Below are positions 120 through 55,192 of a stretch of DNA of 64,000 nt, one piece after another. Made by a program: the position numbers and the translations under genes. The notes beneath the pieces were generated by a model. That model ran no database searches. It had not been told where the DNA came from and saw only the letters and a program-made list of their open reading frames with translations. Positions within the stretch are counted from its first letter, which is position 1. Each line of letters opens with the position of its first letter. Location: contig NW_017264198.1 in NCBI RefSeq assembly GCF_001619985.1, positions 434,001-498,000 on the forward strand, read 5' to 3'. This stretch comes from Xylona heveae TC161. Taxonomy: Eukaryota; Ascomycota; Xylonomycetes; Xylonales; Xylonaceae.

Positions 120-970
120 GATTGTGTGCCCGTGTTTCGTAGATATGCGTAGTTCAAGAGGAGGCAAGCTTCGTGCTGAAGGGTAGCATCTGGCTCAATA
201 AGTTTTGCAAATACTTAGGAAGGGCGACGGATATTTTGGTCGTTCTGGAGGACAACTGCGGATTATTATTGCTAAGTTACTAGACTGTAGATGGTTGATG
301 AGATTAGATGTGATTAGATTCATCTGACAAGCGAAAATTTATCGACGAGCCGATTAGATCGTTCAGTGCCATCGAGCCAACGAGCCTCGGGGATGATCCA
401 TGACACTCTAGACGCGTCGTCAAACTCTCGGCCTTTGATTAAGTCTTTGGTTTTCCTGGATTTTGCATTACATTCGGAGTTTATCGGACTGCAGGGCCTC
501 GGTTGTCTTTTCTTGGGAACTGTCGATAGAAGTTTACAAGGGCCTGTCTGCTGTGTCCAGCCCCGGATTGTCGCCCCCGTCTCATTCGCTCCAACTCCTC
601 CGCATTGTCTACGCTACATTCACATCACAGCAACTGCGGGCGCGCGGCACGGTCAACGATGTTCAGAACCTGAACCCACAATACGATTCCGAAGCCATCT
701 TCGTCGCACTCCAGGTCTGAAAAGGCGCTTTCTAATACCTGGGACGGGAATTATTTATTTCAGGACTGATACGGGTCGCAAGATCTTATCGCGAGATCGG
801 CGGGTGACGCATCAGGTCGTTGATTAGGTCCGGTGGGAACACTGGCCACTGCCTCCCCTCTTTACCATCCGTGGACTGTCTAAATCGACTGTCGTCATTG
901 CATCATCCAAGTCGAATATTCAACGTCTTGGTGTAGTGGCTGTCCCAGGCTTATATCGGAACTCTACGTG
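120..970. other. Intergenic, probable divergent promoter region
   Basis: About 850 bases between the left-edge gene and the SNF2-RING gene. A 150-codon frame exists near 366-827, but it lacks an ATG at its start, resembles nothing known and looks like chance. No RNA gene or repeat was seen. Confidence 0.5.
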
Positions 971-3900
971 ATGTCAGACGCTTTATTGAGCACAGAGAGT
1001 CTTGAGGAGCAGTTGATTCTGAACAGGGTTCTTCTAAGGTCTCTTATAGAAGACCCTGAGCATAACATTGCACAGGAAGACGAGTTGCGACGCACTATCA
1101 AGAGCCAGGAGACTGACCTAGCTCATAGAAGGCGGGAAAGAGAAATGGGCGATCGAAATGTAGCGACACCTTCCGCATATTCTGACCATGATACTCACGG
1201 CGGAAATCGAGCTCCCCCTCCACATACCTACCCCAAAGCGCGAGCGGTAGACTTTTCAACGCTTCCTCCAAGATCCATCAGTTCTCCTTCGCTCGCCAGT
1301 TCGACTTCGAATGAACAAAGCAATGCCTCTTTTTCCTCCGGTTCAAGCCCTCCACAATTATCGATGACGCGCTCCTCCCCGATGTTTCAACACTCGCTTC
1401 CAAGCCGAAAGCGGGAGCGAGGAAGCCTTGAATTACATTCTCCATCCCATGCGCGGCACAGCAAATCCAGGCGCACTTCACCTGGCAGAGCAGGATCACC
1501 TGATTCCTTCGGAATGCGAGATGACGTAGAACAAGAACTACTTCGCCGTCAAGGGGAACTCGAGATCCGGGCACTAAAGAGATATGAACAAGAAAAGCGT
1601 GACGCCGCAGTTGCAAAACGCTTACAAGATGAAATGACGAGATCGGATCGAGCCGTTTCCATGGCGTCGCGACCCTCTTTTCAAACTTCACTGGTAACTT
1701 CGCCAAGACGTCAACCACCCAAACCCAGACCCTACCCTACGATAAAAGAAAGCCGACAGCAAAGTCCGGTAGTAAAGCAGGACCCAGCTACAGCAGATTC
1801 CAGACTTCCTCTCATGGGCAACTTTTCGGGAATATCTGGGGTTAGCAGTGACGATGATGATGAGTTACTGGAGATCTCAGCAAATGAATTTCAGCACAAC
1901 ACCCGGTCGCCGCCCTTACATCCGACATCCGCCTCGGGCTCAGCGTTGAGTCGTACGCGGAGATATGGCAACCTAAACCCGTCTGCGGACTTTATTGATA
2001 TTGATGATCTCGAAGACGCCATGTCGCCATTGCCCTCTTTGCCTTCCACTCGTTTGCCATCACAAAACTCCTCTGCTTCATTCGATATCCAACCTGGAAG
2101 GAGAGACCATTACAACAAACCTGATGAAAGATCACGGTTCTCGTCGGCTGTGGATGCTGTCCGGCAAGGATCGGCTACTATAGGTTCTCATTTAAGCAAC
2201 CTTGGGAGTGCCGTAGGGAGATGGATGAATGTGCCAGAGGGATACCAACCAGCGTCACCCTATGGAAATTTGTATGGCTACCCGTACTCGAACGAATACG
2301 GCGGTGCATATGGATACGGATATCCATCTCCGTTTGGTATGCCATACGGGGCTGACCGTTCAATGCCTGGTGGCTCGAACTCGTCGTATTTCAATCACCT
2401 TTCACATATGGTACAAAGCGGAAAGTATGGGCCGAACCTCTCTGGCGATGCTTTTCAAGCTTTAGCAGATCGCTACGATTACATTGTCAACGACCCAACT
2501 AAGACCCGAGAGGAGATAAAGGCGCTTCTGGATAATATCCGGCCAGATGAGGAGCTACCTCCTGAAAACCGCGAAGGAACACCTGATGGCCTAAAATATC
2601 CGTTGATGGAACATCAAAAACTTGGCTTGTCATGGTTGAAGAAAATGGAAGAAGGGTCCAACAAGGGGGGAATATTGGCTGATGATATGGGCTTGGGCAA
2701 AACAATACAAGCTCTGGCATTGATGCTGTTTCGGCCTTCCAGCGACACTCGACAGAAAACAACTCTTATAGTTGCTCCTGTCGCACTTCTAAGGCAGTGG
2801 GAACGGGAAATTCAGACCAAGGTTAACACCAACCATCGTCTCACAACATATCTTCTCCACGGAGTAAACAAAAAGAATGTCACTTGGAATCGAATCAGAG
2901 AGCATGACGTTGTTCTAACAACCTACGGCACTCTCGCATCAGAATACAACCAGAAGGAGAGTGCCAAACGGGCTAGGAGGGCCAATCCTGCGCTCAGAGG
3001 TGTACGCACGGAGAAATTACTGCTATTGGGAGATGAGTGTAGGTTTCACCGGTAAGTAATTTCGGATTCTCTTCTCGCTTTGAGTTTTGCGATATTCGAG
3101 AGACTGAATCCATACAGGGTAATTCTTGATGAGGCACAATGTATCAAAAATAAAGACACCAAGGCCGCTAGAGCAGCCTGTTGTCTACAAGCTTCGACAC
3201 GTTTTTGCATGACAGGCACGCCCATGATGAACAATGTTGAGGAGTTATATTCTCTGATCTGTTTCCTTCGAATTAAACCGTACAATGAATTAGAAAGATT
3301 CAACAAGGTATGTCCAATCGCAAACTTTTCCTTTAAGCGTTCCACTCACAGCTTTTAGGATTTCAAGCGACCCTTAAAGGGTACAAGCGAAGCCGGCAAG
3401 GAACAGGCAATGAGGAAGCTGCAAGCCTTGCTCAAGGCAATACTACTTCGTAGAAATAAGAAGTCGAAAATTGATGGTCGTCCGATTCTCCAACTGCCGG
3501 AACGAACGACGGAAGTTGTGCACGCCGTGTTCGATAACGATGAGAGCGAGTTTTATAGAGCTCTTGAAACGAAAACGGTTCTGCAATTCAACAAATATCT
3601 GAAGGCCGGTACGGTTGGTCGGAACTATTCGAATATCCTCGTCTTGCTCCTTCGACTTCGGCAAGCTTGCTGCCATCCACACCTTATAAAGGATTTCGGC
3701 GTTGCCGCTAATGCCGAGCTCTCGACAAATGATATGCTCGCTCTGGCCAAGGAGCTGGCTCCCGATGTTGTGGCCAGGATCAAAGAGATTGCCGCTTTTG
3801 AATGCCCTGTCTGCTATGATGCGGTGGAAAATCCAGCCATATTCCTCCCTTGTGGACATGATACTTGTTCCGAGTGTTTTACGAGAATCTCAGATCCATC

Positions 3901-18578: not shown

Positions 18579-21500
18579 TTAAACAGGCTCGATATTCTGC
18601 AGCGGGACATAACCTTCATCTCTGATACGAGGTGCACGTCTAAACGAACGCAACCTGGCGACCAAATCGCTCAAGAGACCAGTACCAGTACCAGTACCAG
18701 TACTAGTGCCTGCACGTCTGACGCGCCGACCGAGGCCGGGATCACTTGCATCGGCCTTGTCCAAGACATCGACAGACATCCAGGCGGGGCGTTTCCAGAA
18801 CTTGAGCAAAAGACTGCTTCCCACCACACTGACACTGGACGCGGCCATGGCAGCGCCGGCGGCCATGGGATGCAAGTGCCAGCCCAGGGGCAAGAAAAAG
18901 CCCATGGCAAAGGGCAGGCCCAGGACATTGTACATGCAAGCCCAGACGAGGTTGAGGCGGATGCGGCGGAAGATGGTCTTGGCGAGGTGCAGACTGGTGG
19001 GGACGTCCAAGAGGTCGTCGGACCGCATGAGGACAATATCGGCCGCCTCGACGGCAACGTCGGTCCCGGAAGCCATGGCGATGCCGACGTCGGCGGTGGC
19101 GAGCGCGGGCGAGTCGTTGATGCCGTCGCCGACCATGGCGACGACCTGCGGGCCCCGGCGGGAGGGCGAGCCTGTGCTCTGGATTTCGCGGATAATGGCT
19201 TGTTTCTGGTCTGGCGAGACGCCGGCGTAGACGTTTTCAGGCGGTATTCCTGCCAGTGCCGCGACTGCTTGGGCGGTGGACAGCTGGTCGCCGGTCACGA
19301 GGGAAGTTTCGAGTCCGAGATGGTGCAGGGCACGGATGGCGGCAGTGGCGGTAGATTTGAGAGCATCAGAGAGGAAAACGTTGCCCGCGTAGACGGAGTC
19401 AATGGCCACAAAGATGGTGGAGATGCCGGCGGAAGATCTGGATGAGGTAAAAGAGGCTTTTGCACCTGCACCAACACCACTACCACGGCCATCACGGTAA
19501 TCGGGATCGGCGTCTCTTGGCAAGGCGACTCCGAGTGAGCGGAGGTAAGCGGCGTTTCCAATGGAAACGTGATACCGTTTTCGCGCGGCATGATGATGAT
19601 GGGCGGCGGGGGAAACCATTGCGGATACTCCCTGGCCGACGGAAGCCTCGAAATCGCCTGAACTACCCTCGATAGAGCCGTCTGCTTCGAGACCAAGTTG
19701 CTGCTTCGCCTTGGCAAGAATGGATTTGGCAATGGGGTGTTCACTGCCCACTTCGGTCAAACCCACCAGCGTCCACCACAACCACTCTTGATCCTCCCCA
19801 TCCCAGTCGGTTTCCAGGTTTCTTTGGACTACGTCCATTTTCCCGACAGTCAGTGTGCCGGTCTTATCAAAGACGACATGTTTTACCTTGGTCGCTGTTT
19901 CGAGAGCCGCTCCGCCTTTGACGAGAATGCCGTGTTCTGCTCCAACGCCGGTACCGACCATGACTGCCGTAGGCGTACTGAGGCCGAGGGCGCATGGGCA
20001 GGCAAATACAATGACAGAGATGCAAAGTTTAAGGCAGACCATGAAACGTCCACCGCTGGCTTCATCCGTGAAGATTTTGGGTGGGTGTGGAAGCAAATGG
20101 CTCAGCACGATCCAAACAAGAAACGTTACGAGTCCGAGGGTAATAACTGCAGGGACAAAGTAGCCGGCAACCACATCTGCCAAGCGCTGAATAGGAGCTC
20201 TACTCGTTTGCGCGTCTTGAACGAGCCTGACAATCTGGCTGAGCTGTGTGTCTCGGCCTGCCCTTGTGACTCTAAAATCAAGTCTGCCCGCGCCATTGAC
20301 CGTTCCTGCAATGAGCGAGTTGCCTTTGCGCTTGAGAATCGGTACTGGCTCTCCAGTAACCATGCTTTCGTTGACAAAACTCTCTCCACGTGTAACGGTT
20401 CCATCGGCTGGGATCTTATCGCCTGGGCGGAGAATAACAATGTCGCCAATCTGAATCAACTCGGTTGGTATAGACCTCTCTTCAGACGCATTGCCGTTCT
20501 CGACGTTATCAGCGGACTGAGAAGTTTTATCGTCGCCTTTTGAATTCTCCCACATTTCTGCGGCTTTTTCGGCCGCGATAGGGTCCGTGTAGATGGTGGC
20601 CATGGATGGCGCCAGTGACATTAATCTCGATAAGGCTCTTGATGTTTGGCCCTTGGCTCTATTTTCCAAATAACGTCCAAGACTGATAAAAGTTATCAGC
20701 ATCGTGCTTGTGTCGAACACTGTACTTGGGCGCGTGTGGGGTTTTGAAAGCACCGAGACAATCATGGCGCCAACGCTGAAGAAGTAGGCGGCCGAGGTAC
20801 CCAAGATGACAAGAACGTCCATTGTTGGTGAGCCATGGCGGAGCGATTTGAGCGCTGAACCATAGAATCGTTTGCCGATGCCGAACTGAACCGGTGTAGT
20901 GAGTGCCAAGCACACGACATCGCCGAGGTAGAGTCCCGGGAGTAGGAAAATTATCGAACCAAAATCTAGCGCTGGAAGAAACATTGGAATAATCATGCTA
21001 ATAAGAAACACGGGTATCGCAAAACAAAGAGAAACATAAAATGCTCGCTGCCACTCTCGGATTTCCCGAAGCTTTGACAACGATTCTAACTGAGCATTGT
21101 TGTCTTCCGAATCTGCCACCAGGGCATTCATCCCGGTAGCTTCTATTGCTTCCACCAACTGGCGAAGACCAGTCATGGTAGGTTTATGTGTGACGGTGGC
21201 TCTTGAGGTGATGAAATTGACCGAAGTCGATGTGACTCCTGGTAACGCGGATAGTGTTTCCTCCAACAACGAAGCCGAGGACGGATCTGTCATGCCGTAG
21301 ATCTTTAATTGAACAGCCGACGTAGCGCCCGCTCTCTGGACACCTTCGTTTTGAGAAGATATGATATGAGCATCGAATCCCCTATCTTCAATGATGGAAA
21401 CAATTTTTTCCGCGGAAAGCTTTTCGGGATCGTGCACAATAACAGCTCGCTCTGCCAAAAGGCTGATATTGAATTGCGCAACTCCTTCGAGATCCTTGAA

Positions 21501-22238
21501 ACCGCCTTCAACAGCAGACGTGCAAGCACCACAGGTCATGCCTTCTACAGCGACCGTCGTTGTCAAGACTCTTCGCTCTGGTCCGCTGGATTGAGCACCC
21601 GTCCGCTTCAGAGACGTCGATGGTTGTGATGGCTTGCTGTCAATTATTGTCGCACCGAATCCGCGTCCTTCAATGATGTCTGCAATCTGCTCCGGACTCA
21701 AAATATTCGTGTCATGTTCGATGACAGCTCGTTCAGACAACAGTGAAATGCTGATTGACTTCATGCCAGGAACATCCTTGAAGCCTCCTTCAACCGCAGA
21801 GGTACAGGCGCCACAAGTCATGCCTTCAATGGCAACGGTTGTCGTGGATAAACCATTGTTTCCCAGATTGTCGTCCAACTCGACCTCAGCATCATAATCT
21901 CCATCGCTCTCTGTGGGTAGATCGGTCGACAATATTTGCGCATCGAAGCCTCGGTTTTCAATAATTTCCTTAATCTCATCGGGCGACACCGTTTGGGGAT
22001 CATGGACAACGACAGCCCGTTCGAGTACCAAGCTGACCGACACGCTGCCGATTCCATCAACCTTGCTAAATCCGCTTTCAACGGCCGACGTACAGGCACC
22101 GCAGGTCATGCCGTCGATCCGCACAGTGGTGGTAGCCATATGCTTCGAAGACACATCTCCCTGTGGTACGGGAATTGTCGACATTTTGCGATCGGAACCA
22201 ATGTCTTGCTTCGACATTGGCAACAGTGGCGAATTCAT
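18579..22238 (-). CDS. ccc2: Copper-transporting P1B-type ATPase, Ccc2 family
   Basis: A single uninterrupted frame of 1219 residues. Three N-terminal HMA domains each carry GMTCGACTSAVE (about residues 43, 131 and 235). A fourth HMA-like domain (about 310-375) has GMTDPSSA in place of the CxxC motif, so it should not bind copper. The membrane part includes the CPC ion-binding motif (ACPCALGLSTP, about 745). The catalytic domain shows TGEPVP, the phosphorylated Asp in DKTGTLT (about 789) and GDGINDSPALA (about 1036). The protein loads copper into the trans-Golgi for secreted cuproenzymes such as multicopper oxidases and laccases. A Thr-Gly/Ser simple repeat lies near the C-terminus. The gene is divergent from csn7. 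Confidence 0.95.
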   Translation of the reverse strand: MNSPLLPMSKQDIGSDRKMSTIPVPQGDVSSKHMATTTVRIDGMTCGACTSAVESGFSKVDGIGSVSVSLVLERAVVVHDPQTVSPDEIKEIIENRGFDAQILSTDLPTESDGDYDAEVELDDNLGNNGLSTTTVAIEGMTCGACTSAVEGGFKDVPGMKSISISLLSERAVIEHDTNILSPEQIADIIEGRGFGATIIDSKPSQPSTSLKRTGAQSSGPERRVLTTTVAVEGMTCGACTSAVEGGFKDLEGVAQFNISLLAERAVIVHDPEKLSAEKIVSIIEDRGFDAHIISSQNEGVQRAGATSAVQLKIYGMTDPSSASLLEETLSALPGVTSTSVNFITSRATVTHKPTMTGLRQLVEAIEATGMNALVADSEDNNAQLESLSKLREIREWQRAFYVSLCFAIPVFLISMIIPMFLPALDFGSIIFLLPGLYLGDVVCLALTTPVQFGIGKRFYGSALKSLRHGSPTMDVLVILGTSAAYFFSVGAMIVSVLSKPHTRPSTVFDTSTMLITFISLGRYLENRAKGQTSRALSRLMSLAPSMATIYTDPIAAEKAAEMWENSKGDDKTSQSADNVENGNASEERSIPTELIQIGDIVILRPGDKIPADGTVTRGESFVNESMVTGEPVPILKRKGNSLIAGTVNGAGRLDFRVTRAGRDTQLSQIVRLVQDAQTSRAPIQRLADVVAGYFVPAVITLGLVTFLVWIVLSHLLPHPPKIFTDEASGGRFMVCLKLCISVIVFACPCALGLSTPTAVMVGTGVGAEHGILVKGGAALETATKVKHVVFDKTGTLTVGKMDVVQRNLETDWDGEDQEWLWWTLVGLTEVGSEHPIAKSILAKAKQQLGLEADGSIEGSSGDFEASVGQGVSAMVSPAAHHHHAARKRYHVSIGNAAYLRSLGVALPRDADPDYRDGRGSGVGAGAKASFTSSRSSAGISTIFVAIDSVYAGNVFLSDALKSTATAAIRALHHLGLETSLVTGDQLSTAQAVAALAGIPPENVYAGVSPDQKQAIIREIQSTGSPSRRGPQVVAMVGDGINDSPALATADVGIAMASGTDVAVEAADIVLMRSDDLLDVPTSLHLAKTIFRRIRLNLVWACMYNVLGLPFAMGFFLPLGWHLHPMAAGAAMAASSVSVVGSSLLLKFWKRPAWMSVDVLDKADASDPGLGRRVRRAGTSTGTGTGTGLLSDLVARLRSFRRAPRIRDEGYVPLQNIEPV

Positions 22239-35504: not shown

Positions 35505-38407
35505 ATGGCTTCTTCAAGAATATTTATTCGGGGGTTACCCCCAAAACTTACGGAAAATGACTTTAAGCAGCATTTTTCATCTCAGCAGCAGATCACAGAT
35601 GCAAAGCTGATCCCTCACCGCCGCATCGGCTACATTGGGTATAAAACCCCAGAAGATGCTCAGAAGGCTGTGAAGTATTTCAATAAATCCTTCATTCGCA
35701 TGTCCAGGATTGCAGTGGAAATTGCTCGCCCGGTAAGTCGCTGTCCTTCCCGACCTTTTCCCTTGGAAGGCTGCCGCTAATACGACACCCAGTTCAATGA
35801 CGACAATTTACCCTTATCAAGGCAGCAGCGTAAACAAGACAAGGCTACTGATGGTCGTAACAATGTCACCGCTGAGGCTCCTGGACAAGAATCGTCACAA
35901 GACAATCCCCTTAAACGGAAACGTGAGGGACGAGACGATAAGGAGGATCTAGAGAAGGATCCCAAGCTTCAAGAGTTCTTGGAAGTGATGCAGCCGACGT
36001 CCAAATCTCACACTTGGGCAAATGAAGGCGCAGTAAACCCCACCGCTGACACACAGACGCCCGGTGATGAAGTTAAACCTCATGTTCCGGAAGCTGAGAG
36101 CGATGATGAGTATGAAGTCGTGCCGAAGCGGTCTAAGACTACTTCGGAAACACACATACCATCTACGAACACAACAGTAGCTGGACCTGACCTTCAGTCT
36201 AATGGTCCCGATGCTGAACCAAATGGTGAACATGACGGCACTCAACCCACCGTCCCATCAGAAGGGGAGCAGGGGCCCTCTGGACCTGTCTCTGATGCGG
36301 ATTGGCTTCGTTCACGTACAAGCAGACTGCTTGGTTTAGAAGATGAAGACGACGAAGAATCAAACCTGTTCCAAAGATCACAGGGCGCAGCATCACTTGC
36401 TCCTAGTGCACAGCCCGTTGAGGAAACGGAGAAACAGGGGGTTCCAAATGATATTTCAGAAGCACAGGAAGATGTCGAAATGGCAGATCCCCACGAGCAA
36501 GATGAGAAGGACTCGAAGGATGCGGATCTCGAGACCATCTCCTCGACCCGCCGACTCTTCCTAAGAAATCTGCCTTTCTCCACTTCTGAAGATGACTTGC
36601 GGCAGCTGCTAGGCCAAGTTGGCGCGATTGAAGAGGTAAGAAAGATTTGCATTTCTTTGAACTATTTCCCTACTCGACTTCTATGATGAACCCAGATAGG
36701 GACAACTGATGCTCAGCATTTGGTGAGACCTTGGGAGACATTTTAGTAGATGCGTCTCTTATCTGAGAAGTCTTTCGTCAACCTGTTTATAAATCCATTG
36801 GCGTTCCAGGTAAACGGTGCTAATACTCTTATCTATCAGGTACACTTACCGCTTAATCCATCCTCAGGTCACAGCAAAGGGTTTGCTTACGCTCTATTTG
36901 CCGATGGCTCCGCAGCTCAAGAAGCCTACCAAAAGTTCGATGGTCAAATCTTTCAAGGGCGGCTTCTGCACATTCTACCTGCTGCAGCGAAGAGAAGTAA
37001 TACGCTTGATGAGTTTGCTATCTCCAAATTGCCTCTCAAGAAACAGCAACAAATCAAAAAGAAGTCGTCTGCAGCGTCTTCCACTTTCAGCTGGAATTCG
37101 CTTTACATGAATGTACGTGGAACTCCATTAGAAGGTCCTTTTGACCAACAACTGACGTTGAAATGCAGGCCGATGCTGTCATGTCTTCTGTCTCAGAGCG
37201 ACTGGGCGTTTCAAAGTCGGATTTACTTGACCCTACGTCTTCAGACGCTGCTGTCAAGCAAGCACATGCCGAAACTCATGTTATACAAGAGACGAAAGCG
37301 TACTTCAAAACTCACGGAGTTGACTTGGACGCATTTAAGAAGCGTGAACGTGGCGACACGGCCATTCTCGTCAAGAATTTCTCATACGGCACGACAAGTC
37401 AAGAGCTGAAGAAGCTTTTTGAAGAATTCGGTCAAGTTGTACGATTGTTGATGCCACCGACGGGCACCATCGCGATTGTCGAATATGCTCAAGCGCCCCA
37501 AGCTCGTGCTGCTTTTAGTAGTCTTGCATATCGGAAGATAAAAGACTCTATCCTCTTTCTAGAGAAAGCCCCCAAGGATTTATTTGTCTCTGGGCCTATC
37601 CCTGATCAAGTCCCCGTAGCTGGAGGCACAGTGCAAACGCCACAGGCCACAGAGGCCCCACAGGCACGCAGCGCTGAACTTTTGAAGATGGATAACCCCG
37701 ACGCAGGTATTAGCACAAACACACTGTTTGTGAGAAATCTCAATTTCGCCACAACAACTGCGAGACTCCAGGAAGTTTTTCAACCTTTGGATGGCTTCCT
37801 CTCTGCGAGAGTGAAGACGAAGTCAGACCCGAAGCGTCCCGGTCAAACACTTAGCATGGGCTTTGGGTTCCTCGAGTTTAGAACTAAGGCGCAAGCCGAA
37901 GCTGCCCTCGCATCTATGAACGGATATAACCTTGACGGACACCAGCTACTCCTTAGGATGTCGCATAAAGGCATGGATGCGGCAGAAGAACAAAGAAATG
38001 AGGCAAATGCAAAGAAGCTGGCAGGGAAGAGGACGAAGATCATCATCAAGAATTTGCCGTTCGAAGCTACAAGGAAAGATATTCGTGCCCTCTTTGGCCC
38101 TTACGGCAAACTCCGATCAGTGCGATTGCCGAAGAAGTTCGACAGTTCTACGCGAGGATTTGCATTTGCGGATTTTGTTACGCCGAGGGAAGCCGAGAGT
38201 GCCATGGACGCTCTCAAAGATACCCATTTGCTTGGCCGCAGGCTAGTCTTGGACTTTGCCGCTGCAGAAGCCGAGGATGCGGAAGCAGAGATTGAAAAGA
38301 TGCAGAATAAGGTTGGCCGCCAGGTCAACAAAGTGGCGTTGCAGCGACTTACAGGCGGGGGACGAAAGAAATTCAATGTGCAAAGGGACGAGGACGACGA
38401 AAATTAA
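35505..38407 (+). CDS. mrd1: Pre-rRNA processing RNA-binding protein Mrd1 (five RRMs)
   Basis: Four exons (35505-35732, 35793-36635, 36840-37112, 37169-38407) encode 860 residues. Five RRMs lie at about 4-76 (IFIRGLP), 331-410 (LFLRNLPF, split by intron 2), 510-580 (ILVKNFSYG), 633-715 (LFVRNLNF, GFGFLEF) and 737-813 (IIIKNLPF, GFAFADF). A long acidic, low-complexity linker separates RRM1 and RRM2. Mrd1 is an essential nucleolar factor that binds nascent pre-rRNA and is needed for the early cleavages that yield 18S rRNA. Intron 2 is 204 nt, far longer than the others (56-60 nt), and contains a box C/D snoRNA. The five-RRM architecture makes the identity secure. Confidence 0.96.
36676..36772 (+). 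ncRNA. Intronic box C/D snoRNA within mrd1 intron 2 (candidate snR76-type)
   Basis: A perfect C box ATGATGA (36683-36689) and a D box CTGA (36763-36766) are closed by a 6-bp perfect terminal stem, GACTTC (36676-36681) with GAAGTC (36767-36772). An internal D' box CTGA lies at 36706-36709, followed by a degenerate C' (GTGAGA, about 36723). Total length is 97 nt. The nucleotides just upstream of D' include AGATAGGGACA, complementary over 11 bases to TGTCCCTATCT, a conserved segment of large-subunit rRNA. By the D+5 rule the target is the first C of CCC, which appears to match or lie within one nucleotide of yeast 25S Cm2197, the snR76 site. The rRNA sequence and site number are from memory. The snoRNA ends about 67 nt before the 3' splice site. 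Confidence 0.85.
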
Positions 38408-49906: not shown

Positions 49907-52204
49907 ATGTCTTCAGCCACTGAAGGGGCGAAGATCGCCGACCTCAAGAAGGACACCATTGATGTCCATGATCCTAATAACAGAATCACCACTGACTTCG
50001 GTGTGAAGTCAAGCAATACCGATGATTGGCTCAAGGCTTCGTCCGGCGACAAGACCGGACCTATGCTGCTGGAGGACTTTGTCGGAAGGGAGAAGGTAAC
50101 TACCCTTTTTCACATAATCCAAAAATATTTTGAGTCAATTACTGATGCTCTAAACTATAGATTCACCGCTTCGATCATGAACGCATCCCGGAGCGTGTAG
50201 TCCATGCCCGTGGTGCTGCGGCTTTTGGTACCTTTAAGCTATACGAAAGTGCTGAAGATGTCACTACGGCTGGAGTTTTGACGGACACTTCTCGATCAAC
50301 TCCTGTCTTCCTTCGATTTTCCACTGTATTGGGAAGCAGAGGAAGTGCTGATACCGTACGCGACGTTCGTGGCTTTGCCGTCAAGTTTTACACGGACGAG
50401 GGTAACTGGGACATTGTTGGAAACAACATTCCTGTCTTCTTCATTCAGGATGCGATTAAGTTCCCAGACATCAGTAAGTAATGATTACTATGCCTTTGGC
50501 AGATTTTGAGGACTAATGACCATTGCAGTCCATGCTGGCAAACCCGAACCTCACAATGAAGTTCCTCAAGCTCAAACTGCACACAACAACTTCTGGGACT
50601 TCCAATTCTTGCACACTGAGACAACCCATATGTTTATGTGGACCCAGAGTGATCGCGCTATTCCTCGATCGTACCGAATGATGCAGGGCTTCGGTGTCAA
50701 CACTTTCACTCTTACCAATAAGAAGGGAGAGCGTCACTTTGTAAAGTTCCACTTCACACCTACTTTGGGCGTGCACTCCTTGGTTTGGGATGAAGCCCTG
50801 AAAATTGCTGGTCAAGACCCCGACTTCCATCGCAAGGATCTCTGGGACGCCATTGAAGCCGGAGCTTACCCGAAATGGAGATTTGGTATCCAGACAATTC
50901 CCGAGTCCAAGGAACACGACTTCGATTTCGATATTTTGGACGCCACCAAGGTCTGGCCGGAGGAGCTCGTCCCTATCCGGTACATTGGTGAACTCGAGCT
51001 CAACAGAAACCCCGATGAGTACTTTACTCAAACGGAGCAAGTCGCTTTCTGCACGTCGCACGTGGTTCCTGGAATTGGCTTCTCAGATGATCCTTTGTTG
51101 CAGGGTCGTAACTTTTCTTACTTTGATACTCAAATCACTCGGCTGGGTGTCAACTGGGAAGAACTTCCGATTAACCGGCCTGTGTGTCCTTATATGAACC
51201 ACCAACGCGACGGCGCAATGAGGCACCGGATTTCAAAGGGCACTGTCAATTACTGGCCTAATCGATTTGGTGTTGGCCCGCCTGCAACCAAGGAGGAGGG
51301 CGGATATCTGGAATATCCGGAAAAGATTGCTGGATTGAAGCAGCGTCTCCGGAGCAAGAAATTCTCCGACCACTATAGCCAGGCACAGCTTTTCTACAAC
51401 TCTCTGGCTCCTCACGAGAAGGCGCACGTTCTGTCCGCTCTTAGCTTTGAATTGGACCATTGCGATGACCCAGTCGTCTATACCCGCTTGACCGAGCGTC
51501 TAGCTGACATTGATCTTGAGTTGGCGCAAGGCGTTGCTGAGGCGGTTGGTGCGCCGGTCCCACAGAAGGCTGGAACGCCAAATCATAACAAGAAGTCTCC
51601 GTCGCTGAGTCAGACTTACTACAACCCGAAGGAGCCTACCATTGCCACGCGCAGAGTTGCCATTCTCGTTGCGGACGGCTTCGATCCCGTTGCTTATTAT
51701 GGTGTCAAGGCTGCCTTGACGGCCGCAGGAGCCCTTCCCTTCACCATTGGACCCAGGCGTCTTCCCGTCCATGCTCAGGGCGAAGATAAGAGTGGCAAAG
51801 GCGTTAGCCCCGATCACCACTTTGAAGGAATGCGCTCAACATTGTTCGATTCCATCTTCATCCCCGGTGGTGCCCATGTGGAGAAGCTCCGGAAGAATGG
51901 ACGTGCTCTGCACTGGGTTCGGGAGGCGTTTGGTCACTTGAAGGCCATTGGTGCAACCGGTGAGGCGGTTGCTCTGGTTCGGGATGCCTGCCAGCTCCCA
52001 GGTGTCCAGTTCTCGAGTAGCAATGAGGTTGTTGACTCGTATGGCGTTGTCACTGCGGCCGCTACTCACCCTCAGAGCTTCAAGGAGACCATCAAGATGG
52101 TCAAGGGAGCCAAGGACTTTATCGATGTCTATACATATAACATTGCCCAACACAAGAACTACCAGCGGGAGCTGGATGGGCTGGCTTCAATGGTGGCCTT
52201 TTAA
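49907..52204 (+). CDS. catA: Large-subunit (clade 2) catalase with C-terminal DJ-1-like domain
   Basis: Three exons (49907-50095, 50161-50473, 50529-52204) encode 725 residues. The ATG at 49907 gives a cytoplasmic protein; another in-frame ATG lies 45 bases upstream. The distal heme pocket is [12 protein letters not shown] and the distal Asn side lies near [18 protein letters not shown]. The proximal Tyr is in [14 protein letters not shown]. The C-terminal part (about 540-715) is the DJ-1/glutaminase-like domain seen only in large catalases ([32 protein letters not shown]). The enzyme breaks hydrogen peroxide into water and oxygen. The absence of a signal peptide and the overall form suggest the spore-type CatA of aspergilli rather than secreted CatB. 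That assignment is an inference. Confidence 0.9.
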
Positions 52205-53725: not shown

Positions 53726-55192
53726 ATGCTCGCCTTCAAATCGCCGTCACACTTTGGCCGACGTGATCAGAGACTGCGATGCCTGATCCCCATAGCCTGC
53801 GTGATCCTGTTTCTGTTTATCTACGTTGGACCTGGCATCGACCCTGTCAAGCCGACTTTGGTGCGACTCGAATCATGGCATTCAAACGTGACGAGAACGC
53901 CGCAAGACTTTTGGGACGAGTTTGTCGTGATACTCGCGGCGGCAAGGCCGCAGGTGCATGGCCCTCGAGGAGTGGACCCGTGGGTGCCAGCGAGAGCGGA
54001 TCGATTCAACTGGGACCAGGCCGATGAGGTGACGCAGCAAGATCAAATGTCGTTGGGTGACGACGAGCTTGAGAGCTTGCGCATGGGACACTCGTGGCTT
54101 GTGGAGAAGATTCAACAAGGAAAAGTCCAGCTGCCCTATGTCAAGGGCTCGCGCGGGATTGTCTACTCTGCGGGTGGTCACTATCTGGCCATAATGATGG
54201 TCTCGCTGATGATGCTACGGGACACGGGTTCAGAGCTGCCGGTGGAAGTCTTTTTGAATTCCGATTCCGAATACGATCCGATCATTTGCGACCAAGTGCT
54301 GCCGACGTTCAACGCCAAGTGCATTCTGCTCAGCGACATTCTCGAGTCGTCGAAGCTGCGGCTGACGTTTTCACACTATCAACTCAAGATCTTTGCCGTC
54401 TTGTTCTCCTCCTTTGAAGAGATGCTCTTCCTCGACGCGGATAATTTCCCGGTGCGTCTTCCCGACGATTTGTTCGAATCCCCCGAATTCAAGCAGGACG
54501 GCTTGATCCTCTGGCCGGACTACTGGATCTGCACCACCTCGTCGCACTTCTACACCATTGCGGGTCTCCCGCCGAGCGCATCGCGGCGGTATCCCACCAC
54601 CGAAGCGGGTCAAATGGTCATTTCCAAGTCCCGCCATGCCGACACGTTGCTTCTGTCGGGCTTCTACAATGCCTACGGCGACGACTACTACTACCCGCTC
54701 CTATCGCAAGGCGGACCGGGCCAAGGAGACAAGGAGACATTCCCCGCCGCCGCGCGCGCCCTCAACCACTCGTATTATGCCGTGCACACGCTCCCTCAGC
54801 CTCTGGGAAGAGCGTCGGGAGATTTCCAAGGGTGGGCGGTGCTGCAGTATAATCCGTCCGACGACTGTCTGGACAACAATGCCCACTGCAACCCGCCGCG
54901 GCCGTTTTTCGTCCATGTCGGATGGGGCAACAAGCTGAACCCGTTCCGCCAAGACGAACGCGATTACCGCATCTTTGGCAGTGAGGAATTCTTGCGGCAC
55001 CTCTTTGGCAAAGACCTCGAGAAGCTGGCCTATCAGAAGATGATCCACGTGGCTTGCGAGAAACGCTTCTTCTTCCACAATGTGGAGAATCCAGGCGACG
55101 CCTGTCAACGGTTGAAACGCATCTACGAAGCCGTCTTCAAATCCACATACGAACCTAACACTATCGCCGCTGCTCCTCAAAAGAGTTCATAG
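53726..55192 (+). CDS. Alpha-1,2-mannosyltransferase, Mnn2/Mnn5 family (GT71)
   Basis: A single exon encodes 488 residues. A short basic N-terminus and one hydrophobic segment (about 18-37, CLIPIACVILFLFIYVG) make a type II Golgi membrane protein. The lumenal domain starts with GIVYSAGGHYLAIMMVSLMM. It contains the nucleotide-sugar and metal-binding LFLDADNFPV and a conserved WPDYW, and ends in a VHVGWGNKLNPF region. These are features of the Mannosyl_trans3 family, which adds alpha-1,2-mannose branches to cell-wall mannoprotein glycans. Which family member it is cannot be settled here. The gene is unusually GC-rich relative to the flanking DNA and has no introns. Confidence 0.88.
   Translation: MLAFKSPSHFGRRDQRLRCLIPIACVILFLFIYVGPGIDPVKPTLVRLESWHSNVTRTPQDFWDEFVVILAAARPQVHGPRGVDPWVPARADRFNWDQADEVTQQDQMSLGDDELESLRMGHSWLVEKIQQGKVQLPYVKGSRGIVYSAGGHYLAIMMVSLMMLRDTGSELPVEVFLNSDSEYDPIICDQVLPTFNAKCILLSDILESSKLRLTFSHYQLKIFAVLFSSFEEMLFLDADNFPVRLPDDLFESPEFKQDGLILWPDYWICTTSSHFYTIAGLPPSASRRYPTTEAGQMVISKSRHADTLLLSGFYNAYGDDYYYPLLSQGGPGQGDKETFPAAARALNHSYYAVHTLPQPLGRASGDFQGWAVLQYNPSDDCLDNNAHCNPPRPFFVHVGWGNKLNPFRQDERDYRIFGSEEFLRHLFGKDLEKLAYQKMIHVACEKRFFFHNVENPGDACQRLKRIYEAVFKSTYEPNTIAAAPQKSS

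What the first reader, a model, noticed from the sequence alone, without database searches (positions are those of the whole stretch)
36676..36772. Box C/D snoRNA inside an intron of the pre-rRNA processing gene MRD1
Seen: perfect C (ATGATGA) and D (CTGA) boxes, an internal D' box, and a perfect 6-bp closing stem GACTTC/GAAGTC. All lie in the one MRD1 intron that is 204 nt long when the others are about 60. Established: box C/D RNAs guide 2'-O-methylation at the base paired five nucleotides upstream of D or D'. Inference: the 11-base guide matches TGTCCCTATCT of large-subunit rRNA, which would give a site at or next to yeast Cm2197 (snR76). A snoRNA hosted by a gene whose protein acts on nascent pre-rRNA suggests co-regulated supply. 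I do not know of a prior description of this host.
Basis: partly seen in the sequence, partly recalled or inferred. Interest (0 to 1): 0.78.

Follow-up and report, generated by a model that had tools for sequence, protein, structure and literature searches.

The report
MRD1-intron snoRNA matching fungal snR64
An intron of a fungal ribosome-assembly gene (MRD1 of Xylona heveae) holds an ordinary small RNA gene of a known family, predicted to guide one chemical mark on the large ribosomal RNA at the site served in yeast by snR64, not by snR76 as first proposed.

Summary
Window 36676-36772 (+) matches Rfam RF01513 (Afu_335, an Aspergillus fumigatus box C/D snoRNA) at 68.7 bits, cut-off 50. It is the one match to that family reported in the 24.3 Mb genome. 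It lies in intron 2 (36636-36839, 204 nt) of MRD1, whose spliced protein equals the Xylona heveae TC161 Mrd1 entry over 860 aa. The 11-nt D' guide matches TGTCCCTATCT in a eukaryotic LSU rRNA. Its D'+5 C lies exactly 140 nt 3' of the snR76 site and 49 nt 3' of the snR75 site, so it is yeast Cm2337 (snR64 / human U74), not Cm2197. The genome's snR76 homologue is another locus with another guide. Unremarked before: a block shared with Afu_335 holds 8 nt complementary to rRNA overlapping and just 3' of the guide's target, between 8-nt pairing arms. I read it as a likely accessory guide, though two energy controls do not support it. Expression, methylation, and whether other fungi host this snoRNA in MRD1, could not be tested. 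New member of a known kind; modest interest.

The parts
35505..38407 (+). host gene MRD1: exons 35505-35732, 35793-36635, 36840-37112, 37169-38407
   Evidence: spliced translation of 860 aa identical to P0001, 'putative pre-rRNA processing protein Mrd1 [Xylona heveae TC161]'; 5 RRM_1 stretches
36636..36839 (+). MRD1 intron 2 (204 nt, phase 0), GT...AG; CTAAT branch-site-like motif at 36820
   Evidence: no extra residues at this junction in 6 of 6 aligned homologues; the branch site is a motif match only
36676..36772 (+). box C/D snoRNA, Afu_335 family
   Evidence: RF01513 68.7 bits over 36679-36768
36676..36681 (+). 5' arm of the terminal stem, GACTTC
36683..36689 (+). C box ATGATGA
   Evidence: aligned
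36694..36704 (+). D' guide AGATAGGGACA, complementary to LSU TGTCCCTATCT
   Evidence: 11 Watson-Crick pairs to L011 2703-2713; duplex -18.9 kcal/mol, 5 of 500 shuffles as good
36706..36709 (+). D' box CTGA
36720..36726 (+). degenerate C' box TTGGTGA (5 of 7 to RUGAUGA)
   Evidence: aligned with AUGAUGU of the RF01513 consensus; read by eye
36732..36739 (+). left arm TGGGAGAC of an internal 8-bp stem (two G-U pairs)
   Evidence: 151 of 20000 shuffles; but the 43-nt fold is no better than shuffles
36744..36751 (+). TAGTAGAT, proposed accessory guide, complementary to LSU ATCTACTA (L011 2710-2717), 4 nt shared with the D' guide's target
   Evidence: lies in the block ATTTTAGTAGATGC (36740-36753) shared with the RF01513 consensus
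36754..36761 (+). right arm GTCTCTTA of the internal stem
36763..36766 (+). D box CTGA
36767..36772 (+). 3' arm of the terminal stem, GAAGTC

Best explanation
Window 36676-36772 matches the known box C/D snoRNA family Afu_335 and lies in intron 2 of MRD1; it is predicted to be trimmed out of the spliced intron and to guide 2'-O-methylation of the large-subunit rRNA C that corresponds to yeast 25S C2337, the snR64 / human U74 site. Shown here: family match, boxes, host gene, intron borders, 11-nt complementarity, and the position of the site by counting on a eukaryotic LSU. Inferred: that the RNA is made, that it binds the usual four proteins (fibrillarin and partners), and that the methyl group goes on at D'+5. 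Also inferred: the 8-nt element TAGTAGAT, 3' of the C' box, likely adds pairing with the rRNA next to the target, as accessory guides do in yeast.
For: RF01513 68.7 bits, cut-off 50; single reported family match in the genome. Host protein identical to Xylona heveae Mrd1. Guide complement at L011 2703-2713 in an LSU_rRNA_eukarya match of 1778.7 bits; distances 140 and 49 nt to the snR76 and snR75 sites equal yeast 2337-2197 and 2337-2288 (positions; yeast numbers). The best place in the genome for the yeast snR64 model (18 bits) and for the insect Cm2645 model (25.7 bits) is this locus. P. falciparum PFS15 and PFS16, assigned to LSU Cm2337, carry the same TAGGGACA. N. crassa CD36 (26S-Cm2299, D', intronic, listed as homologous to snR64 and U74) is a separate snoRNA from CD12 (snR76, Cm2159); both numbers differ from yeast by 38.
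Against: Scores to RF00509 (18, cut-off 38) and RF00530 (25.7, cut-off 48) are below the families' cut-offs, so the snR64 link rests on the target, not on sequence family. No expression or methylation data. Xylona's own LSU was not seen: the LSU family search did not complete and TGTCCCTATCTACTA is absent from the assembly, so the target was read from an unnamed eukaryote's rRNA on a bacterial MAG record (L011). Accessory element: the 17-nt segment's best duplex near the site is elsewhere and no better than shuffles (219 of 500), and both Plasmodium RNAs lack it.
Confidence: 0.9

Rival explanations
1. It is the snR76 orthologue and methylates the yeast Cm2197 equivalent.
For: Both are box C/D RNAs with D' guides to LSU C residues.
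Against: The site is 140 nt away. The snR76 homologue is at C2:253812-253902 with guide AUAGCACUGGGCA (Afu_513 60.4 bits, over its cut-off of 48; snR76 model 31 bits, below its cut-off of 55), between Afu_300 and snR75.
Confidence: 0.01
2. A decayed snoRNA copy: a pseudogene in the intron, not expressed.
For: C' box degenerate; no RNA data; weak fold z-score.
Against: C, D', D boxes, terminal stem and the 11-nt guide are intact, and no other family copy was reported in the genome to do the job.
Confidence: 0.05
3. The conserved block ATTTTAGTAGATGC is a structural hairpin or protein site and its match to rRNA is chance.
For: 8-nt complementarity near the site arises in 185 of 5000 shuffles; the whole 97 nt has two other 8-nt and one 9-nt perfect matches elsewhere in the 3.1 kb LSU; the block can pair with itself; the duplex energy test is no better than shuffles.
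Against: The same 8-mer is in the Afu_335 and in the Tetrahymena TtnuCD23 consensus, beside the same D' guide, and its rRNA match directly overlaps and extends 3' of the guide's target.
Confidence: 0.4

Closest known systems
Afu_335, Rfam RF01513 (A. fumigatus)
   Same: whole length matches (model 1-96), same C, guide and D boxes, same ATTTTAGTAGATGC block
   Different: stem arms around the block differ in sequence, D' box is CTGA instead of CUUA; the host of Afu_335 in Aspergillus is not known to me (paper not held)
yeast snR64 / human U74 (SNORD74) / Neurospora CD36 / P. falciparum PFS15
   Same: D' guide with TAGGGACA for PFS15; predicted same LSU C (yeast 2337)
   Different: host and genomic setting: snR64 monocistronic in yeast, U74 intronic in human, CD36 in an intron of a gene not named in the passages, PFS15 and PFS16 in one intron of a ribosomal protein S27a gene
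snR76 (Afu_513 homologue of this genome)
   Same: box C/D RNA guiding from D' onto LSU
   Different: other locus, other guide, other site
yeast snR13 with its accessory guide (PMC5389607, passages)
   Same: extra rRNA pairing that overlaps the guide's target; paper says overlaps also occur in snoRNAs with a single site
   Different: here it is only predicted, and lies between 8-nt pairing arms

Membership tests
box C/D snoRNA | C box RUGAUGA and D box CUGA near the ends, brought together by a terminal stem | tested here: met
   ATGATGA 36683, CTGA 36763, 6-bp stem
box C/D snoRNA | guide of 10 or more bp upstream of D or D' with rRNA target | tested here: met
   11 bp to LSU, one nt (A 36705) between guide and D'; rRNA of another eukaryote
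box C/D snoRNA | stable RNA bound by fibrillarin, Nop56, Nop58, Snu13 | not testable with these tools
   needs RNA and pull-down data
Afu_335 (RF01513) | score over the curated cut-off | tested here: met
   68.7 vs 50 bits
snR64 / U74 (site family, yeast Cm2337) | D'+5 nucleotide is the yeast C2337 equivalent | tested here: met
   140 nt from snR76 site, 49 nt from snR75 site
snR64 (RF00509) and snoMe28S-Cm2645 (RF00530) as Rfam sequence families | score over the curated cut-off | tested here: not met
   18 vs 38 and 25.7 vs 48 bits, though the top place in the genome
snR76 | guide complementary to UGCCCAGUGCU (yeast Cm2197 site) | tested here: not met
   guide is AGATAGGGACA; snR76 homologue found elsewhere
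Mrd1/Rbm19 (host) | five RRM domains, full-length homology to Mrd1 | tested here: met
   5 RRM_1 stretches; identical to P0001; five RBDs outside animals per PMC3440411 (abstract and passages)
accessory-guide box C/D snoRNA | second rRNA-complementary element near the target that raises methylation | tested here: inconclusive
   8-nt element present, shared with two family consensuses, absent from 2 of 5 compared; energy control negative; effect on methylation not testable

The most novel reading that the evidence does not exclude
The snoRNA is a two-handed guide: an accessory 8-mer shown in the loop of a hairpin, kept from Aspergillus to Xylona while its stem sequence changes, first catches rRNA at ATCTACTA and then hands the four shared nucleotides over to the D' guide, so that methylation at the C2337 equivalent depends on hairpin opening; and it is made from the transcript of a pre-rRNA assembly factor, tying its supply to ribosome production.
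Probability: 0.2. Interest if true: 0.5.

Novelty: new member of a known kind. Interest (0 to 1): 0.25.

Why it matters
It places a snR64-type guide in a class (Xylonomycetes) with few described snoRNAs as far as I know (recalled, not searched), adds MRD1 to the list of ribosome-assembly genes that host snoRNAs, and corrects the predicted site, which decides where a methylation assay must look. If the accessory element is real it is a compact case for testing how extra rRNA pairing and a hairpin regulate a guide.

Tried and rejected
Rejected: snR76/Cm2197.

Rejected as chance level: a strong antisense match of the C' region (36713-36741) to LSU 2633-2655 of L011, -28.7 kcal/mol, stronger than the guide itself. 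Against a 160-nt stretch near the site 2 of 500 shuffles reach it, but against the whole 3.1 kb fragment 20 of 300 do; the Afu_335 consensus segment gives -25.5 with a different pairing.

Led nowhere: viral-contig scans for relatives with two patterns, 0 matches each. Own-genome LSU family search, eight tries without an answer. Papers not held: the A. fumigatus ncRNA paper and a fungal snoRNA survey, both recalled by DOI. Literature on an MRD1-hosted snoRNA: 0 papers with mrd1, snoRNA, intron and host gene; 42 papers with two of mrd1, snoRNA, rbm19, of which 20 were listed and none shows this in title or abstract start. Conservation of the host in other fungi could not be tested: no fungal genomes are held and no metagenome scan was allowed.

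Full report
Observation. Rfam gives one match over a gathering cut-off in the whole window: RF01513, Afu_335, 68.7 bits against 50, E 3.1e-9. In the own genome that model gave one match at E<=1, this one, 54.8 bits (54 of 2561 candidates scored). A DNA search with the stretch found only itself. Folding energy alone is unremarkable (z -1.97, 12 of 200 shuffles).

Host. Joining four exons gives 860 residues identical to a protein named Mrd1 of Xylona heveae TC161, so the organism is that fungus or a very near relative (Xylonomycetes). The search scored 7996 candidates and found 1882 homologues, of which 120 were listed. The protein has five RRM stretches. Intron 2 splits it after residue 357, within an RRM; six homologues aligned there show no extra residues at the junction. 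The snoRNA starts 40 nt after the 5' splice site and ends 67 nt before the 3' splice site. In N. crassa 45 of 55 box C/D snoRNAs are intronic and 5' distances are mainly 41-60 nt (PMC2780460, passages), so this layout is usual for the group.

Target. Xylona's own LSU was not obtained: the LSU family search did not complete in eight tries and the string TGTCCCTATCTACTA is absent from the assembly, from which I infer that the rDNA is not assembled. A scan of genome contigs found the string CTGTCCCTATCTACTATC in five stretches. One, L011, is a eukaryotic LSU fragment by Rfam (1778.7 bits), on a record titled as a bacterial MAG. Four of the ten stretches were scanned and only L011 matched a family. 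The guide pairs with L011 2703-2713 and D'+5 falls on C 2706. The snR76 site there is C 2566 and the snR75 site G 2657. The distances of 140 and 49 equal yeast 2337-2197 and 2337-2288, with snR64, snR76 and snR75 assigned to those sites in PMC5199042 (one passage). N. crassa and T. rubrum tables agree: CD36 26S-Cm2299 and CD12 Cm2159 are both 38 below yeast; TRnc_3573 Cm2324 and TRnc_4261 Cm2184 both 13 below (passages). One table seen in PMC3511168 prints Cm2235 for snR64, which disagrees.

snR76 of this genome. The snR76 model's best place is C2:253812-253902 (31 bits, under its cut-off of 55); that stretch is Afu_513 at 60.4 bits (cut-off 48), between Afu_300 and snR75, with guide AUAGCACUGGGCA. 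A paper on fungal clusters gives the order snR77-snR76-snR75 (PMC3596301, passages). Whether Afu_300 is snR77 was not tested.

Family. By sequence it is Afu_335. Rfam's snoMe28S-Cm2645 (clan CL00069) also matches, below its cut-off, and PMC3511168 lists U74, snR64 and snoR44 in that clan. The snR64 and Cm2645 models have their best genome place here, but at 18 and 25.7 bits against cut-offs of 38 and 48. I therefore file it as Afu_335 with a predicted snR64-type target, not as a member of RF00509.

Accessory element. The most evenly conserved block besides box C and the guide is ATTTTAGTAGATGC (36740-36753). It holds TAGTAGAT, complementary to L011 2710-2717, which overlaps the guide's target by four nucleotides and extends 3' of it. 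The element lies 11 nt before the D box, so it is not a normal D guide. It is also in the Afu_335 and TtnuCD23 consensuses and not in PFS15 or PFS16: 3 of 5 compared. Arms of 8 nt flanking the block can pair in Xylona (151 of 20000 shuffles reach 8) and in the Afu_335 consensus (327 of 20000), and 7 of the 8 pairs differ between the two. Against: a consensus is not a real sequence, the alignment has gaps in both arms, several pairs are G-U, the 43-nt fold is no better than shuffles (85 of 200), the 8-nt match near the site occurs in 185 of 5000 shuffles, and the duplex test on the 17-nt segment is negative (219 of 500, best pairing elsewhere). Yeast precedent: accessory guides that overlap the guide's target (PMC5389607, passages) and similar suggestions in vertebrates (PMC8522698, passages).

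Host meaning. A pre-rRNA factor hosting a snoRNA is not new in kind: P. falciparum Enp1 hosts three (PMC2656528, passages), and host genes are said to be enriched for ribosome biogenesis (PMC12309372, passages). Co-regulation remains untested, and a 44-genome survey favours drift of snoRNAs among broadly expressed genes (PMC3511168, passages). I found no paper on an MRD1-hosted snoRNA in the searches; the library lacks most subscription papers and the two most likely ones.

Verdict. A real, intact-looking snoRNA gene of a known fungal family in an MRD1 intron; site corrected to the snR64 position; a likely accessory guide as the one feature worth an experiment.

Noticed in passing
window 36810-36839: An upstream TTCCAG at 36804-36809 could serve as an alternative 3' splice site; it would add ten codons in frame (VNGANTLIYQ) within an RRM. 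Six homologues show no such insert.
   Followed up: partly
window 36684-36686: If intron 2 is retained, the first in-frame stop (TGA) lies inside the snoRNA's C box.
   Followed up: no
window 36713-36741: C' region can pair with LSU about 50-73 nt 5' of the target at -28.7 kcal/mol, stronger than the guide; 20 of 300 shuffles do as well against the whole fragment.
   Followed up: partly
L009 2800-4200 (-), own genome C2 near 253.6-254.2 kb: A box C/D cluster Afu_300 - Afu_513 (snR76-like) - snR75 in the conserved fungal cluster I order.
   Followed up: partly
window 50516-52201 (+), 53726-55189 (+), 18579-22238 (-), 968-3052 (+): Open frames with Pfam matches: long catalase with DJ-1-like end, mannosyltransferase, four-HMA-domain heavy-metal P-type ATPase, SNF2-related helicase part.
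   Followed up: no
L011 (record titled Gammaproteobacteria MAG DT_94): The 3.1 kb contig is a eukaryotic large-subunit rRNA, likely contamination in a bacterial genome record.
   Followed up: no
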